Assembly (NCBI GenBank): GCA_937892105.1 | Contig: CALAUZ010000009.1 | Location: 1 to 14,771, forward strand | Source: an uncultured Fretibacterium sp. | GTDB taxonomy: Bacteria > Synergistota > Synergistia > Synergistales > Aminobacteriaceae | DNA: 14,771 nucleotides | Reading direction: 5' to 3' | Shown: piece after piece, positions 103-5,979 of the stretch | Numbering within the stretch: position 1 is the stretch's first letter | Layout of the letters: each line of letters begins with the position of its first letter | The notes under the pieces: model-generated | Databases searched by the model: none | What the model was told of the DNA's origin: nothing | What the model saw: the letters and a program-made list of their open reading frames with translations, nothing else | Translations under genes and position numbers: made by a program

Positions 103-781
103 GAAGGGAAAATCAAGACAGTAACGGTTAAGCGAGATGCGGTAGGAGATATATGTGTATCTAGTGTATGATGTACAGCGCGAACCAGTTGAATCCCGAA
201 CAGGTAAAAGCGTAGGATTTGACTTTGGGCTGAAAACATTTCTCACAGGCTCAGACGGGAATGATATAGTCTCACCAGCCTTCTTTAAGCATAACGAGAA
301 ACTATCAAGACACAATGCAGCAACTTATCCCGTAATAAAGGAGTGTAGTAATAATCGAGAACGAGCAAGGCTTGAAATAGCGCGAAAATATCGCAAACTG
401 GAGAACCAGCGCAAAGATTTCCACTTCAAGTTGGCCCGCCTACTTTGTAAAGAATACGCAGTAATATGCCTTGAAGACCTAAACATGAAGGCAATGGCGA
501 GATTATGGGGCAGAAAAATTCACAGCTTGTGCTTCAGCGGGTTTGTGAAGATCCTGCAATACAAAGCACTGGAAGTGGGGACGCAGATAGATAGATATTA
601 TCCATCAAGCCAGTTATGCAGTGTTTGCGGGTATAAGAATGAAGCGGTGAAGGACTTGCGAGTTCGATAATGGGACTGTCCATCATGCGGAACACATCAT
701 GAGCGAGAAAGGAACGCGGCCAAAAGCATACACATGGCAGGGACATCAGCCATTAGCGAAGACACGGTAAGGAGACTGTAA
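103..781 (+). pseudogene. tnpB: tnpB (IS200/IS605 accessory RNA-guided nuclease), broken
   Basis: The frame starting near 106 encodes GKIKTVTVKRDAVGD, a TnpB pre-RuvC segment. It then breaks at about 148-155 and continues in the next frame from 155. A lost AT unit in an ATATAT run would explain this. The continuing frame holds RuvC-I (GFDFGLKTFLT), RuvC-II (ICLEDLNMKAM) and the first zinc-finger pair (CSVCGY). A TAA at 668-670 replaces the Glu codon expected in the motif VREWDCP. Beyond the stop the same frame continues with WDCPSCGTHHERERNAAKSI and ends at 779-781. The usual DRDxNAA of RuvC-III reads ERERNAA, so both acidic positions are Glu. The N-terminal half is missing, probably through the adjacent IS630-like element. 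No tnpA is present. The three lesions make an active nuclease very unlikely. Confidence 0.85.
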
Positions 782-966: not shown

Positions 967-1779
967 TTACCTTTCGTTAAGCACAACCCTTCCCGACTTC
1001 ACCGAGTGAGTAAGCCAGACATTCCCGCCAATCACGCAATGATCCCCGATGACCGTCTGACCTCCAAGTATCGTAGCACCAGCGTAAATCACAACGTCAT
1101 TCCCAATATCAGGGTGCCGCTTTATCCCTTTCACCAGCGAACCATCAGGGGCAACATCAAAACTCTTTGCGCCAATAGTAACATTCTGGTATATCTTCAC
1201 CCTGCTGCCTATCGTAGATGTCTCGCCGATTACTACACCTGTACCGTGATCTATGAAGAAGTATTCCCCGATTGACGCACCTGGATGAATGTCTATCCCC
1301 GTCAGCCTGTGTGCATATTCAGTGATAATTCGGGGGATTAAAGGCACGTTCATTATGTACAGCTCATGCGCTACCCTGTATGCGCTGATTGCAGTAAAAG
1401 CCGGATAAGCCAGTATTATCTCGTCAGGATTCCTCGCCGCTGGATCTCCCTGATACGCCGCAACAATATCCGTCCACAATATACGCCGTATTTCAGGCAG
1501 TTTAGCCAGCAGCATTGCCGTGAACCTTTCAGCTTCCAACTCTTTGTCATCAGTATGAAGAAGCCTTGAGATTGCAGCCTTGAGACGGTCTGAGGCTTTG
1601 CGGAGATTTTCGGCTATAGTCCTGCCTTCAGGATTGACGTGTTCCGGGAACATTGCAGCCTGAATATCCTTGAATGACGCTTCAACACTCTCCTTTATTC
1701 CGTTGTAATCCGTTTTGTCTTTGGCCGCGAAAAACGTTAAACCTTCCTCAGCCGACTTCAGAGCATCATCAATATTCAT
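967..1779 (-). CDS. cysE: Serine O-acetyltransferase
   Basis: This enzyme acetylates L-serine with acetyl-CoA to give O-acetylserine, the substrate of CysK, in the cytoplasm. The protein has 270 residues. An alpha-helical N-terminal domain (about 1-150) contains the typical YPAFxAISxYRxAHELY stretch. A left-handed beta-helix of hexapeptide repeats (about 163-262) follows. The catalytic Asp and His are visible in GIDIHPGA (D163) and IDHGTG (H178), and VVIGET follows. The sequence resembles the longer SATs found in anaerobes rather than E. coli CysE. It ends VVLNER, without the C-terminal isoleucine that docks into CysK in the classical cysteine synthase complex. Its ATG lies three bases after the cysK stop, so the two are co-translated, with cysK first. 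The start is the only ATG that gives the full helical domain. Confidence 0.95.
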   Translation of the reverse strand: MNIDDALKSAEEGLTFFAAKDKTDYNGIKESVEASFKDIQAAMFPEHVNPEGRTIAENLRKASDRLKAAISRLLHTDDKELEAERFTAMLLAKLPEIRRILWTDIVAAYQGDPAARNPDEIILAYPAFTAISAYRVAHELYIMNVPLIPRIITEYAHRLTGIDIHPGASIGEYFFIDHGTGVVIGETSTIGSRVKIYQNVTIGAKSFDVAPDGSLVKGIKRHPDIGNDVVIYAGATILGGQTVIGDHCVIGGNVWLTHSVKSGRVVLNER

Positions 1780-1782
1780 GGC

Positions 1783-2715
1783 CTATTCCGCGAATAATGC
1801 GGTGGAAAGGTAACGTTCCCCAGTGTCGGGAAGTATCACAACAATATTTTTCCCTGCAAAATCAGGACGTTTAGCGACTTCAACAGCAGCGTAAAGTGCA
1901 GCTCCAGATGATATTCCGGCCAGAAAACCCTCAAGTTTGCCTGTGAGCTTACCGGTGTTTATCGCGTCATCATCGTTGACAGTTATTACCTCGTCATAAA
2001 GCCTCGTGTTCAGAACTTCAGGAACAAATCCCGCACCTATTCCCTGTATTTTGTGCGCCCCTGCTCTCCCAGCCGACAGCACTGGAGACCCCGAAGGTTC
2101 AACCGCTATAATCTTCACATCAGGTTTCACAGAACGCAGATATTCCCCCGTTCCCGTAAGAGTCCCTCCCGTTCCAACTCCCGCAATGAATACATCAACA
2201 TTACCATCTGTATCCTGCCATATTTCAGGCCCTGTTGTGAGACGATGTATTTTGGGATTTGAGGGGTTCACGAACTGTCCGGCAATGAAACTGTCTGGGG
2301 TATTCGCCGCGATTTCGGAGGCCCTCTCGATTGCACCGCGCATTCCCTTGCTTCCTTCAGTGAGGACAAGTTCTGCGCCGTAAGCCTTCATGAGCTTTCT
2401 GCGTTCGATCGACATTGTATCAGGCATTACGATTATTGCCCTGTATCCTCTTGCTGCCGCGACTGAGGAAAGTCCGATACCTGTATTCCCGCTGGTTGGC
2501 TCAATGATTACGCTTCCGGGTTTGAGTGTTCCGGAGGCTTCAGCGTCATCTATCATGGCTTTGGCGATCCTGTCTTTGACGCTTCCGGCAGGGTTGAAGT
2601 ATTCGAGTTTTGCGAGGATTTTCGCATTAAGCCCGAAATGTTTCTGTATCCTCGTGAGTTCGAGAATAGGAGTGTGCCCTATAAGCTGGTCGATTGACGT
2701 GTAAATTTTCGACAT
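1783..2715 (-). CDS. cysK: Cysteine synthase A (O-acetylserine sulfhydrylase)
   Basis: This PLP enzyme makes L-cysteine from O-acetylserine and sulfide. It has 310 residues, the family's usual length. Visible motifs are the PLP lysine in NPAGSVKDR (K47), the substrate loop TSGNTG (74-79), the PLP-phosphate loop GVGTGGT (179-185), GISSGA (267-272) and the C-terminal LPDTGERYLST. The frame is open further upstream, to 2958. The ATG at 2715 is nonetheless the start: it has AGGAGG seven bases before it, and the protein then begins MSKIYTSIDQLIGHTP, as in the family. A 200-base leader with a Cys-rich mini-ORF precedes it, which suggests control by cysteine supply. cysE follows directly. Confidence 0.96.
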   Translation of the reverse strand: MSKIYTSIDQLIGHTPILELTRIQKHFGLNAKILAKLEYFNPAGSVKDRIAKAMIDDAEASGTLKPGSVIIEPTSGNTGIGLSSVAAARGYRAIIVMPDTMSIERRKLMKAYGAELVLTEGSKGMRGAIERASEIAANTPDSFIAGQFVNPSNPKIHRLTTGPEIWQDTDGNVDVFIAGVGTGGTLTGTGEYLRSVKPDVKIIAVEPSGSPVLSAGRAGAHKIQGIGAGFVPEVLNTRLYDEVITVNDDDAINTGKLTGKLEGFLAGISSGAALYAAVEVAKRPDFAGKNIVVILPDTGERYLSTALFAE

Positions 2716-2776
2716 GATAATACCTCCTGCAATATGTAGATAAACTCTGCCTGATAATATGCCAGGCTGCTTGGTG

Positions 2777-2848
2777 AAAAAATATTGTGTTATTGAGATT
2801 AACTGCGCGTAACTAGAAGCTGAAGTGTGAAGGGCAACAGCAACATAT
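2777..2848 (-). promoter_or_regulatory. Candidate attenuator in the cysK leader
   Basis: On the minus strand the segment 2848-2835, which carries the four Cys codons, can pair with 2795-2782 at 10 of 14 positions, plus one G-U, with three mismatches. The second arm is followed directly by six T (2782-2777, sharing one base with the arm). A ribosome stalled on the Cys codons would cover the first arm. The stem is AU-rich, so as a simple terminator it would be weak. Further on, GCCTG and CAGGC (2767-2763 and 2753-2749) form a small hairpin ahead of the cysK SD. The structure is inferred by eye. Confidence 0.4.
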
Positions 2849-2887
2849 GGCCTTGAGAATTGCGTTGAATGATTTATGGCTATACAT
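2813..2887 (-). CDS. Polycysteine leader peptide upstream of cysK (24 residues)
   Basis: A complete mini-ORF runs from ATG at 2887-2885 to TAG at 2815-2813. It starts MYSHKSFN, has four consecutive Cys codons (TGT TGC TGT TGC) at residues 15-18 (bases 2845-2834), and ends PSHFSF. A strong SD, GAGAGGTG, sits eight bases before the ATG. The ORF lies about 29 bases after the predicted transcription start and about 100 bases before cysK. Runs of the end-product amino acid are the hallmark of attenuation leader peptides, and polycysteine leaders that control sulfur genes are known in mycobacteria. Cysteine is rare, so four in a row before a cysteine synthase gene is unlikely by chance. The likely role is to sense charged tRNA-Cys; the peptide itself probably has no function. 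Confidence 0.8.
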   Translation of the reverse strand: MYSHKSFNAILKAICCCCPSHFSF

Positions 2888-2922
2888 AACTGTTTCACCT
2901 CTCTGGAATTTCGTTGCGGGTA

Positions 2923-2951
2923 ATTATGCCACGAATTACACACTAAATCAA
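2923..2951 (-). promoter_or_regulatory. Predicted promoter of leader-cysK-cysE
   Basis: On the minus strand a -35 TTGATT (2951-2946) and a -10 CATAAT (2928-2923) are separated by exactly 17 bases. The transcript would start near 2916, leaving about 29 bases to the leader-peptide ATG and a total leader of about 200 bases before cysK. Confidence 0.55.
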
Positions 2952-3218: not shown

Positions 3219-4556
3219 ATGTTATCAAATCATTCATACCCTACAGATGAGCTTTACGGTTATTCGGACAGCGTAAACGAGCTTCTTGCACGCTACGGTG
3301 TAAAGTTCGGCATCTACAAAGGCGGCCAGTTTCACGAACAGTTATTCCCGTTCGACATAATCCCAAGAGTAATAGGCCGCGAAGAATTTGCTGTTCTTGA
3401 ACGCGGACTGAAACAGAGAGTTGCTGCACTCAACGAGTTTCTCAGGGATATATATTCAGGCAGGAAGATTATCTCCGACGGAGTTATACCTGAAGAGTTC
3501 GTTTACTCAGGAAGCGGCTGGCTCGCACAGTGCAACGGGGTAATGCCTTCAAAGAATATTTACGCCCACATCTCAGGTATTGACCTCGTTCAGGCAAAGG
3601 ACGGAAGCTGGTATGTCCTTGAGGATAACCTGCGCATTCCTTCGGGAGCTTCATACCCTATGACAGCCCGCGAATTATGCAGAAGGTTCGTTCCCTCATT
3701 GTTCGGGGATAACCGCATTGAGGACAACAGGAATTATGCCGTCCTTCTCCGCAATGTCATGGATTACGTGAACACAGGAGGTCTGAACGTCATACTCACT
3801 CCAGGCCGCTTTAACGCCGCATACTTCGAGCATTCATACTTTGCTGAACAGACGGGGGCACATCTCGTTGAATGTTCGGATCTGTCAGTGGAGGACGAAC
3901 ATCTATACTTCTTGGATTATTCTGGCAAGAAGGAGAGAGTTGGGGCAGTTTACCGCAGAATTTCTGACGAGTACCTTGACCCGGTGAACTTCAACAGGGA
4001 GTCGCTCATAGGAATACCCCACATATTCGACATATACAGGAAGGGCAATGTTGCGCTCATCAACGCTCCAGGAAACGGCGCGGCTGACGACAAGGGAATA
4101 TACTATTTCGTCCCGGCAATGGTGAAATACTACCTTAATGAAGAGCCTGTCTTGCAGAACGCTCCAACATACCTGCCATATTATGAAGCTGACATGAAAT
4201 ATGTACTTGAGAATTTCGGAAGCCTCGTGATTAAGGACGTTGCGGAGGCAGGAGGTTACGGCATAGTTTTTGGGGAAAAGCTGACACATCAGGAACAGGA
4301 AGACTTCAAGGCCATGTTGAAGGCTGAACCCAGAAGGTTTATTGCACAGGAAGTTATTGACTTTCGGGATTTGGACATCTACGAGGAAGGCGTGAAAGTA
4401 CCGCGAAAAGCAGATTTGCGTGCATTCGTATTGATGAGCGATGAACCCGTAGTGTGGAAGAGCGGCCTAACAAGGTTTTCGCGCAGGGCAGACTCTTTCA
4501 TCGTCAACTCATCACAGGGCGGCGGCTTCAAGGATACCTGGATAATGTCCGAATGA
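3219..4556 (+). CDS. Circularly permuted ATP-grasp protein (CP_ATPgrasp / DUF404-DUF407 family)
   Basis: This is a predicted ATP-dependent ligase forming an amide or peptide bond on an unknown substrate. The 445 residues show the family landmarks in order: VLEDNLRIPSG (133-143, the acidic metal/ATP site), AVYRRISDEYLDP (243-255), the loop APGNGAADDKGIY (283-295), the Gly-rich nucleotide loop KDVAEAGGYGIVFG (339-352), KADLRAFV (398-405) and the C-terminal RFSRRADSFIVNSSQGGG. The ATG at 3219 has GGGGAG eight bases upstream. The alpha-E gene starts 17 bases after its stop and the transglutaminase gene follows. This trio is conserved in many bacteria, for example as Rv2411c-Rv2409c in Mycobacterium. 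The family assignment is secure but the substrate is unknown. Confidence 0.9.
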   Translation: MLSNHSYPTDELYGYSDSVNELLARYGVKFGIYKGGQFHEQLFPFDIIPRVIGREEFAVLERGLKQRVAALNEFLRDIYSGRKIISDGVIPEEFVYSGSGWLAQCNGVMPSKNIYAHISGIDLVQAKDGSWYVLEDNLRIPSGASYPMTARELCRRFVPSLFGDNRIEDNRNYAVLLRNVMDYVNTGGLNVILTPGRFNAAYFEHSYFAEQTGAHLVECSDLSVEDEHLYFLDYSGKKERVGAVYRRISDEYLDPVNFNRESLIGIPHIFDIYRKGNVALINAPGNGAADDKGIYYFVPAMVKYYLNEEPVLQNAPTYLPYYEADMKYVLENFGSLVIKDVAEAGGYGIVFGEKLTHQEQEDFKAMLKAEPRRFIAQEVIDFRDLDIYEEGVKVPRKADLRAFVLMSDEPVVWKSGLTRFSRRADSFIVNSSQGGGFKDTWIMSE

Positions 4557-4573
4557 AGGGGGATTAGTATTCA

Positions 4574-5209
4574 ATGGCAATATCATGCGTGAACAGCGAG
4601 AGATTATTCTGGCTTGGACGTTACAGCGAGAGAGTATATACAGGGTTGCGCTTGTTCATGGCAGAATATGATGCTATGAGCGGCGGAAGGCTTAGTGAGG
4701 AATACGCGAGACGGTACTGCTTTGACGCTGATAACACCGGCTCTGTATCCTTCAGCCTTATGCGTGCATATGACAACGCTATTGTTCTCAGGGACGAGAT
4801 AGGCACCGAGACATTCAGCTACATTCAGATGGCAGTCTACGATATGAATACAGCCCGAAGGTCTCCTGCACCGTTAATGCAGCTTCAGAAGATAATCGAC
4901 AACATTGCGGCATTCTGGGGCATGGCCGATGACAGGATTGATGATGAACAGGTGCGCGGCATTATCAAGCTGGGCAAGAGGGTTGAACGTGTTGACCTTT
5001 ACGCGAGGAATAATGCTGGCAGTGATGACATACGCAGGGAGATACGCAGGCTTTCATACAGGATTGGCAGGACCGGGCTGCGTTACAATGCTGAAAGGCT
5101 GGACAGTCTGAATGCTCTTGCTGAGGACAGGGAGATTAACCGTCCTGAAATTGTGAAAGAGGTTGAAGCTCTTGCGGATATTTATTCGGCGGGAAAATGC
5201 GAAGGCTGA
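4574..5209 (+). CDS. Alpha-E domain protein (DUF403), short form
   Basis: This is an all-helical protein of unknown biochemical role, nearly always encoded beside circularly permuted ATP-grasp genes. Recognisable motifs are RLFWLGRYSERVYTGLRL (10-27), YDNAIVLRDEIGTETFSYIQ (66-85) and FWGMADDRIDDEQVRGIIKLG (about 114-134) followed by KRVERVDLYAR. At 211 residues it is about a hundred shorter than the usual alpha-E protein, yet it has no frameshift and its ends are well placed. An SD-like AAGGGGGA lies at 4557-4564. It overlaps the transglutaminase gene by 13 bases, which suggests coupled translation. Confidence 0.85.
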   Translation: MAISCVNSERLFWLGRYSERVYTGLRLFMAEYDAMSGGRLSEEYARRYCFDADNTGSVSFSLMRAYDNAIVLRDEIGTETFSYIQMAVYDMNTARRSPAPLMQLQKIIDNIAAFWGMADDRIDDEQVRGIIKLGKRVERVDLYARNNAGSDDIRREIRRLSYRIGRTGLRYNAERLDSLNALAEDREINRPEIVKEVEALADIYSAGKCEG

Positions 5210-5979
5210 GTTATTCTTATCACATGAAGTTATCGTTTGAGAAGCCTGTGAACGAACATTATTTCAAGCTGCGGTGCTTTCCTTCAAGCGATGAGAGGCA
5301 GAGGATTTCCGGCGAACATATAGAGATTTATCCTGTTCACTTCAGCAATTCGGAGCGTGATTCGTTCGGCAACATGTGCATTTACGGTACAGCAAGACAG
5401 AGCCACGATTACTTTGCAGTTGATGTTACTGGTGAGGCTGCCACTGACATTAACGGGAGACTTTCGGCGGAACCTAACAGTGCCGGAATATTCAGGTACG
5501 AGACAGAGCTGACACGTGCTGGAAGGGAAATCCGTGAATTTCACATGAGCCTTGACCCAATGAACTGGATGAACGAATACGAACGTGCATTATACATGAT
5601 GAACGCACTGTATGACGAGTTTACCTACACCGCAGGCATAACTGGAATATTAACCGATGCTGAACACGCCTTTAATCTGAGGAGGGGAGTATGCCAGGAT
5701 TACGCGCACATATTGCTGTCGCTTTGCAGGCTTGAACGCATACCCTGCCGCTACGTTGCCGGAATGATACCTGGCGAAGGTGCAACACATGCCTGGACTG
5801 AGATACTTTATGCTGGGACATGGAGGGGAATAGATCCTACACACAACAGGGAATGCGATGACACATACATAAAAATCTCGTCTGGGCGCGATGCTCAGGA
5901 CTGTGCGATAAATCAGGGAGTGTTTTACGGAGGAGGCAGACAGACGCAGGAAGTAAGGGTAATAGTCCGTGAATTGTAA
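5197..5979 (+). CDS. Transglutaminase-like cysteine protease/amidase
   Basis: This papain-fold protein is predicted to hydrolyse or transfer amide bonds and is the third member of the ATP-grasp/alpha-E set. It has 260 residues. The N-terminal beta domain typical of bacterial transglutaminase-like proteins (SYSYHMKLSFEKPV, then the LR of the HYFKLR stretch) precedes the catalytic core. The triad is visible: Cys166 in RRGVCQDYAH, His198 in GATHAW and Asp213 in IDPTHNRE. No signal peptide is seen, so it should act in the cytoplasm with its partners. The start at 5197 overlaps the preceding gene and keeps the family's first beta strand. An ATG at 5224 is possible but would cut that strand. The SD is weak, consistent with translational coupling. 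Confidence 0.88.
   Translation: MRRLSYSYHMKLSFEKPVNEHYFKLRCFPSSDERQRISGEHIEIYPVHFSNSERDSFGNMCIYGTARQSHDYFAVDVTGEAATDINGRLSAEPNSAGIFRYETELTRAGREIREFHMSLDPMNWMNEYERALYMMNALYDEFTYTAGITGILTDAEHAFNLRRGVCQDYAHILLSLCRLERIPCRYVAGMIPGEGATHAWTEILYAGTWRGIDPTHNRECDDTYIKISSGRDAQDCAINQGVFYGGGRQTQEVRVIVREL

What the first reader, a model, noticed from the sequence alone, without database searches (positions are those of the whole stretch)
2813..2887. Four consecutive cysteine codons in a leader ORF before cysK-cysE
The sequence directly shows a promoter, an SD, a 24-codon ORF with TGT TGC TGT TGC, a stop, then cysK. Leader peptides rich in the end-product amino acid are the established sign of ribosome-mediated attenuation. 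Polycysteine leaders that control sulfur genes are known in mycobacteria. The present genome does not look actinobacterial, so this may be an independent or undescribed case. It is easily missed because of its length.
Basis: partly seen in the sequence, partly recalled or inferred. Interest (0 to 1): 0.85.

Follow-up and report, generated by a model that had tools for sequence, protein, structure and literature searches.

The report
Poly-cysteine leader controlling bacterial cysteine synthase
A tiny gene ending in a run of cysteine codons sits before the cysteine-making genes of many uncultured gut Synergistota bacteria and very probably lets the ribosome sense cysteine shortage and switch those genes on; the papers we could search do not describe it for this phylum, and its cysteine codons fold back onto its own start signal.

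Summary
In detail: minus strand 2887-2813 is a 24-codon, SD-led ORF (MYSHKSFNAILKAICCCCPSHFSF) with TGT TGC TGT TGC, behind a sigma-70-like promoter and 97 nt before cysK-cysE. The same leader lies before cysK in 28 of 81 genomes of the Synergistota family searched; 8 others carry a different Cys leader there. In the first kind the start of the peptide drifts, while SD, spacer and a run of 2-6 Cys are kept. Its RNA folds so that the Cys codons pair with the leader's own SD and start codon: above the mean of a synonymous-codon null in 28 of 28, beyond 95% of draws in 20 of 28, and the arms co-evolve. Terminator-like sites occur in 3 of 28, no T-box was found in the 28 leader genomes, and the cysK SD is not clearly masked. 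The spacer before cysK is C-rich and G-poor in 28 of 28. Best reading: a cysteine-codon leader working by ribosome stalling, perhaps with Rho as output. Response to cysteine and Rho dependence are untested, and the second kind lacks hairpin and C bias. A new variant of a known kind.

The parts
2923..2951 (-). sigma-70-like promoter TTGATT-17-CATAAT with TG before the -10
   Evidence: TTGATT...GTGGCATAATT largely conserved in the alignment
2895..2901 (-). Shine-Dalgarno of the leader, GAGGTGA
   Evidence: GAGGTGA, AAGGTGA or GGGGTGA before the start in the 28 leaders
2890..2894 (-). spacer AACAG, 5' arm of the leader hairpin together with the SD and start codon; ACAG in 25 of 28 leaders, ACAA in L085, L106 and L109
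2813..2887 (-). leader ORF, 24 codons, MYSHKSFNAILKAICCCCPSHFSF, stop TAG
   Evidence: R1 hit at 2.7e-17 (the window is one of the model's own rows)
2834..2845 (-). four consecutive Cys codons TGT TGC TGT TGC
2825..2848 (-). 3' arm of the leader hairpin: Cys codons (CTGTT 2840-2836) and CCCTTCAC (TTCAC 2831-2827)
2734..2812 (-). C-rich, G-poor spacer after the leader stop (18 C, 11 G in 79 nt), candidate Rho loading region
2749..2767 (-). small hairpin GCCTG...CAGGC without a U tract, kept in many but not all relatives
2723..2728 (-). Shine-Dalgarno of cysK, AGGAGG
1783..2715 (-). cysK, cysteine synthase A
   Evidence: TIGR01139 452 bits, cut-off 351
967..1779 (-). cysE-like serine O-acetyltransferase, 3 nt after cysK
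   Evidence: TIGR01172 E 2.6e-44 but under its cut-off; a homologue follows cysK in 39 of 39 Synergistota loci checked, 32 of them distinct

Best explanation
It is a cysteine-codon leader that controls cysK-cysE through the ribosome. Inferred working: the ribosome starts at 2887 and reads the Cys run. With enough Cys-tRNA it passes, ends at 2813, and the leader hairpin (Cys codons paired to the leader's own SD and AUG) closes again, so the C-rich stretch 2812-2734 is left bare, Rho loads and transcription stops before or early in cysK. With too little Cys-tRNA the ribosome stalls in the 3' arm, the hairpin stays open, the leader SD stays accessible, ribosomes cover the 5' side of the Rho region and cysK-cysE is transcribed. 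Supported by comparison: the conserved SD-led Cys-run ORF, its place before cysK-cysE only, and the co-evolved hairpin. Inferred: stalling, response to cysteine, Rho as output.
For: 28 of 81 family genomes carry it, each time before cysK; the 28 leaders studied (window and 27 others) share SD, spacer and 2-6 Cys near the stop. Own hairpin arms pair at -18.7 against -16.3 kcal/mol for swapped arms, 0 of 20,000 permutations as low, also with 24 rows; the changed spacers ACAAGC (L085, L106) and ACAACA (L109) go with changed Cys-region sequence. Pairing is above the mean of the synonymous null in 28 of 28, and at most 5% of 60 draws reach it in 20 of 28; leader folding z mean -2.1, 28 of 28 negative. 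Cys codons in 24 leaders are TGT 58, TGC 27 against 27 and 65 in ORFs of 200 aa or more of the same loci. Spacer C/G 1.95 pooled, C above G in 28 of 28, against 1.00 in 27 other 5' regions, five of which are leader-bearing cysK regions. Rho domain in 12 of 12 genomes.
Against: No expression data. The C-rich spacer and the presence of rho are weak signs of Rho action. The second kind of Cys leader before cysK (8 loci) shows neither the C bias (C above G in 4 of 8, three of these holding only 2 C and 1 G) nor a consistent hairpin (beyond 95% of null draws in 1 of 8), so these features are not needed for a Cys leader. RNAalifold finds no consensus pairs, as registers slip within the Cys repeat. 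In 8 of 28 leaders more than 5% of null draws pair as well (L083 55%). The window's arms pair only moderately: -13.8, and 18 of 27 foreign 3' arms pair better with its 5' arm; L082 is worse, 22 of 27. Kinship inflates these tests. The whole window leader region folds no better than shuffles (z +1.5).
Confidence: 0.58

Rival explanations
1. Translational attenuation as in mycobacteria: RNA around the Cys codons masks the cysK SD, and a stalled ribosome frees it.
For: In many sequences the predicted partner of the cysK SD lies near the leader stop; mean predicted accessibility rises from 0.34 to 0.39 when a ribosome is placed on the Cys codons.
Against: The rise is small and mixed in sign; complementarity of the cysK SD to the Cys region is on average below, not above, dinucleotide shuffles (mean z +0.54).
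Confidence: 0.22
2. Classical transcription attenuation with an intrinsic terminator.
For: Leader ORF with end-product codons; L106 has a GTCTG..CGGAC hairpin followed by AGATTTTT.
Against: Terminator-like sites in 3 of 28 leaders (L086, L106, L152), none in the window.
Confidence: 0.08
3. The ORF makes a small functional Cys-rich peptide (for example metal or thiol related), not a regulator.
For: Open frame and close Cys residues are kept in 28 of 28. In the second kind of leader the N-terminal peptide itself looks conserved (FLxKLLISE).
Against: In 7 of 8 close pairs amino-acid changes outnumber silent ones, and in 7 of 8 most lie before the Cys run; residues after the Cys run are read in a different frame in the window and in L126/L152 although the nucleotides are alike; 19-25 residues only.
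Confidence: 0.05
4. The hairpin itself is sensed by a protein or small molecule and the ORF is incidental.
For: Hairpin arms co-evolve.
Against: No Rfam family at the gathering score in the window; the kept feature is a run of Cys codons before a cysteine synthase, and a second Cys leader without a consistent hairpin stands at the same place in 8 other genomes.
Confidence: 0.05

Closest known systems
Polycysteine short ORFs of mycobacteria (Canestrari 2020, not held, recalled and as cited in passages of PMC9031893 and PMC13236596; Shell 2015 PMC4633059, passages read)
   Same: Run of Cys codons close to the stop of a short ORF before sulfur/cysteine genes; said to attenuate by cysteine-dependent elongation.
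   Different: There leaderless ORFs and a masked SD of the downstream gene (the latter recalled); here SD-led, cysK SD not clearly masked, and the leader's own SD is the paired one. Sequence relation not tested.
Cys leader peptides of Actinobacteria predicted by comparison (Seliverstov 2005, PMC1262725, passages read)
   Same: Cys run near the stop, no conserved terminator, Rho proposed as output.
   Different: Their poly-pyrimidine motifs were not conserved by their own account; here C exceeds G in 28 of 28 spacers and a co-evolving hairpin is present.
uORFC-8-2 motif, Rhodobacterales cysS (PMC8632094, passages read)
   Same: Tandem Cys codons within a stem of a leader ORF.
   Different: Before cysS and with a U run consistent with an intrinsic terminator; here before cysK-cysE and mostly without one.
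LEU element of actinobacterial leuA (PMC1262725, passages read)
   Same: Codon run for the end product paired with an SD box.
   Different: Leucine; described as a conserved pseudoknot before leuA.

Membership tests
Amino-acid-codon leader peptide (ribosome-mediated attenuation, general) | Short SD-led ORF in the 5' region of a biosynthetic operon | tested here: met
Amino-acid-codon leader peptide (ribosome-mediated attenuation, general) | Run of codons for the end product, conserved while the rest drifts | tested here: met
Amino-acid-codon leader peptide (ribosome-mediated attenuation, general) | Response to shortage of that amino acid | not testable with these tools
   no expression data
Classical attenuator with intrinsic terminator | Terminator hairpin with U tract exclusive with an antiterminator | tested here: not met
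   3 of 28 have a terminator-like site, none in the window
Mycobacterial polycysteine short ORFs | Leaderless start (AUG at the 5' end) | tested here: not met
   SD before the start codon in the 28 leaders; predicted start of transcription lies upstream; the 5' end itself is not mapped
Mycobacterial polycysteine short ORFs | Downstream SD masked by RNA that a stalled ribosome opens (recalled) | tested here: inconclusive
   little or no support
Rho-dependent leader attenuator (tnaC type) | C-rich, G-poor region after the leader stop | tested here: met
   28 of 28; not so in the second kind of leader
Rho-dependent leader attenuator (tnaC type) | Rho present | tested here: met
   12 of 12 genomes
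Rho-dependent leader attenuator (tnaC type) | Termination needs Rho and is relieved by stalling | not testable with these tools
   bench test needed
T-box (RF00230) | Match to the covariance model | tested here: not met
   none in the window; 0 of 28 leader genomes, 1 of 30 genomes searched (G004, leaderless, under the gathering score)
uORFC-8-2 | Before cysS with terminator | tested here: not met
   before cysK; compared with passages of the paper only

The most novel reading that the evidence does not exclude
A self-gating leader: the sensing codons are also the lock on the leader's own ribosome-binding site, so a stalled ribosome keeps the leader open for more ribosomes, giving a switch-like, Rho-read response to cysteine; it arose apart from the actinobacterial Cys leaders, and relatives in the same family evolved or kept a second, unlike Cys leader at the same gene.
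Probability: 0.28. Interest if true: 0.68.

Novelty: new variant of a known kind. Interest (0 to 1): 0.55.

Why it matters
In the passages read, cysteine-codon leaders are described for Actinobacteria and for cysS in Rhodobacterales. Conserved ones in Synergistota, where no T-box was found in the 28 leader-bearing genomes, would suggest that ribosome sensing of cysteine arose more than once. The co-evolved pairing of the sensing codons with the leader's own start site is a testable design feature, and 28 natural variants plus 8 of a second kind are at hand for reporters.

Tried and rejected
Not supported as a main mechanism: intrinsic terminator; direct masking of the cysK SD; an alternative pairing of the leader SD with the spacer (mean z +0.42, no better than shuffles); T-box or other Rfam element. 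RNAalifold gave no consensus pairs, so model R1 is sequence only. R1's hit in G181 (5.4e-4) looks like a chance match inside a gene, judged from the sequence alone. Model hits are mostly the models' own rows: of R1's 29 strong hits only G032 and the second copy in G061 were outside it, and R2's 8 strong hits are its own 8 rows; R2's two weak hits (G006 5.1e-4, G086 8.0e-4) were not followed up. A CysK tree of 35 rows did not resolve whether the leader arose once: 4 changes on the best tree, one origin not excluded. The peptide could not be sought in the protein database (24 aa, minimum 40). Rows dropped before counts of the 28: L123 (copy of L110), L121 (leader about 555 nt upstream, found later by R1), L001-L006 (same loci as L081-L086). 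For that reason I lowered the Rho step from 0.45 to 0.4, the whole statement from 0.6 to 0.58, and the novel case from 0.3 to 0.28, and raised the translational rival from 0.2 to 0.22.

Full report
What is there. A run of four or more Cys occurs once in six frames, where 0.075 is expected in shuffled windows.

Where it comes from. The nearest CysK relatives are uncultured Synergistota, mostly from ruminants (L001-L007, 80-88% identity; G028 91%). No genome is held for the window itself. Records L009 and L017 are labelled Aminobacteriaceae, Synergistota by the tree tool; deposited titles say Synergistaceae, Synergistales or Fretibacterium.

Conservation. CysK was sought in 81 genomes of the family of G001. 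Upstream regions were read from 30 loci of that search and 40 fetched ones. could place the gene start in 42 rows (window, 30 loci, 11 of the 40 fetched): 29 show the leader, one of them a second copy (L123); L121 has it too, farther upstream. In one search, 30 genomes have a CysK match of 79% identity or more that begins within the first four residues; 26 of them have the leader, and G004, G040, G007 and G034 do not. G048, whose match begins at residue 40, and G033 (78%) have it as well. For the counts I used 28 leaders: the window and 27 others. Peptides are 19-25 residues, with two to six consecutive Cys close to the stop (L105 has CFCC).

A second kind. Scanning the 29 regions that one search had passed over, I found another Cys leader before cysK in more distant genomes of the family: MRDFLLKILISEIHSGEMCCRC... 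and the like in L133, L135, L139, L140, L141, L143, L144 and L153 (8 genomes). L144 was recognised by its motif only, as its Cys residues are farther apart. A model of these 8 (R2) finds no match up to E 1 in the window or the other type-one loci given to it, and in 185 genomes of the phylum only its own 8 plus two weak hits. Its N-terminal peptide looks conserved, but the SD-Cys pairing beats 95% of null draws in 1 of 8 and the C-over-G bias is absent. So 36 of 81 family genomes have a Cys leader of one kind or the other before cysK.

One site per genome. A sequence model of the first kind (R1) finds strong matches in 28 of 81 family genomes, all before cysK, with no other match better than 0.0057 (strict filters). 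In 185 genomes of the phylum there are 29 with E at most 0.001, of which G181 appears false. R1 finds only the window in a search of the window and 73 other loci, L008-L080. cysE follows cysK in 39 of 39 Synergistota loci checked, 32 distinct.

Peptide or RNA. In 7 of 8 close pairs amino-acid changes outnumber silent ones, and in 7 of 8 most lie before the Cys run. After the Cys run the nucleotides CCCTTCACAC are kept in the window but read in another frame than in L082, and TTTCAC in L126 and L152 likewise (sequence read directly). That argues for RNA, not peptide, constraint there. The Cys codons are TGT-rich: 58 TGT, 27 TGC in 24 leaders, against 27 and 65 in ORFs of the same loci (Fisher 2.5e-7, kinship ignored); 13 genes of the window use 10 TGT and 53 TGC.

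The hairpin. Base-pair probabilities averaged over the 28 sequences show one long hairpin: leader SD, AACAG and start codon with the Cys codons and what follows. Pairing exceeds the mean of a synonymous-codon null in 28 of 28 (mean z 2.25; beyond 95% of draws in 20 of 28) and the mean of a spacer shuffle in 28 of 28 (mean z 1.5). Leader folding energy is below the mean of dinucleotide shuffles in 28 of 28 (mean z -2.1; window only -0.4). Arms pair better on average with their own partners than with those of relatives (-18.7 against -16.3; 0 of 20,000 permutations; also with 24 rows). L085, L106 and L109, with changed spacers, carry matching changes. The window and L082 are weak cases there. 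Consensus folding finds nothing, and kinship inflates all these tests.

Output stage. Terminator-like sites: 3 of 28. Masking of the cysK SD: small and mixed, with complementarity to the Cys region below chance on average. The spacer has more C than G in 28 of 28, pooled ratio 1.95, against 1.00 in 27 other 5' regions of the window and seven relatives; five of those are leader-bearing cysK regions, which makes the contrast conservative. Rho's RNA-binding domain is in 12 of 12 genomes searched. T-box: no match in the 28 leader genomes, one sub-threshold match in leaderless G004. I therefore favour Rho, as Seliverstov and colleagues proposed for mycobacterial cys operons (PMC1262725, passages read), at about 0.4 for that step alone and about 0.85 for ribosome-mediated cysteine sensing.

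Known systems. Canestrari 2020 is not held; what I say of its mechanism is recalled, supported by passages of the review PMC9031893. PMC8632094 (passages) describes tandem Cys codons before cysS in Rhodobacterales with a run of U. PMC2965389 (passages) reports histidine leaders in bacilli. The listings of searches showed no paper on a cysteine leader in Synergistota; two searches listed 12 of 192 and 12 of 94 papers, and the library holds open-licence PubMed Central text only.

Wider lead. In the non-Synergistota loci, mostly gut Clostridia, another Cys-rich SD-led mini-ORF stands before cysK in 17 of 69 scanned against 1.2 expected and 4 on the reverse strand. In one Clostridia family it is rare: 4 of 30 against 0.43, and two of the four (L197, L227) are the loci that led me there.

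Noticed in passing
L133, L135, L139, L140, L141, L143, L144, L153 upstream of cysK: A second, unlike Cys leader (FLxKLLISExCSGxMCC) before cysK in 8 more distant genomes of the same family, without the hairpin or C-rich spacer of the first kind.
   Followed up: partly
L010, L011, L013, L018, L035, L043, L053, L059, L061, L073 upstream of cysK: Another type of Cys-rich SD-led mini-ORF (LRCRRC, FRCC, RCRC) before cysK, mostly in gut Clostridia: 17 of 69 loci against 1.2 expected; rare within one family, 4 of 30, two of them the seeds.
   Followed up: partly
L121 1130-1497: A 114-bp unit repeated 3.2 times between leader and cysK; the consensus holds an AAGGAGGAATTTATT ribosome-site-like piece.
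   Followed up: partly
window 2923-2951 and promoters: Several cysK promoters with and without the leader carry TTTAGTNGG beside the -35, like an Rrf2/CymR-type half-site (recalled, not tested); a second control layer is possible.
   Followed up: no
window 3219-5979: Three genes divergent from cysK without any NCBIfam match; they resemble an ATP-grasp / alpha-E / transglutaminase set (recalled).
   Followed up: no
window 155-670: ORF resembling part of a TnpB-type transposon protein (CSVCG zinc motif), possibly cut short (label recalled).
   Followed up: no
G061 C2 and C10: Leader plus cysK present twice with identical scores, possibly a duplicated stretch or assembly redundancy.
   Followed up: no
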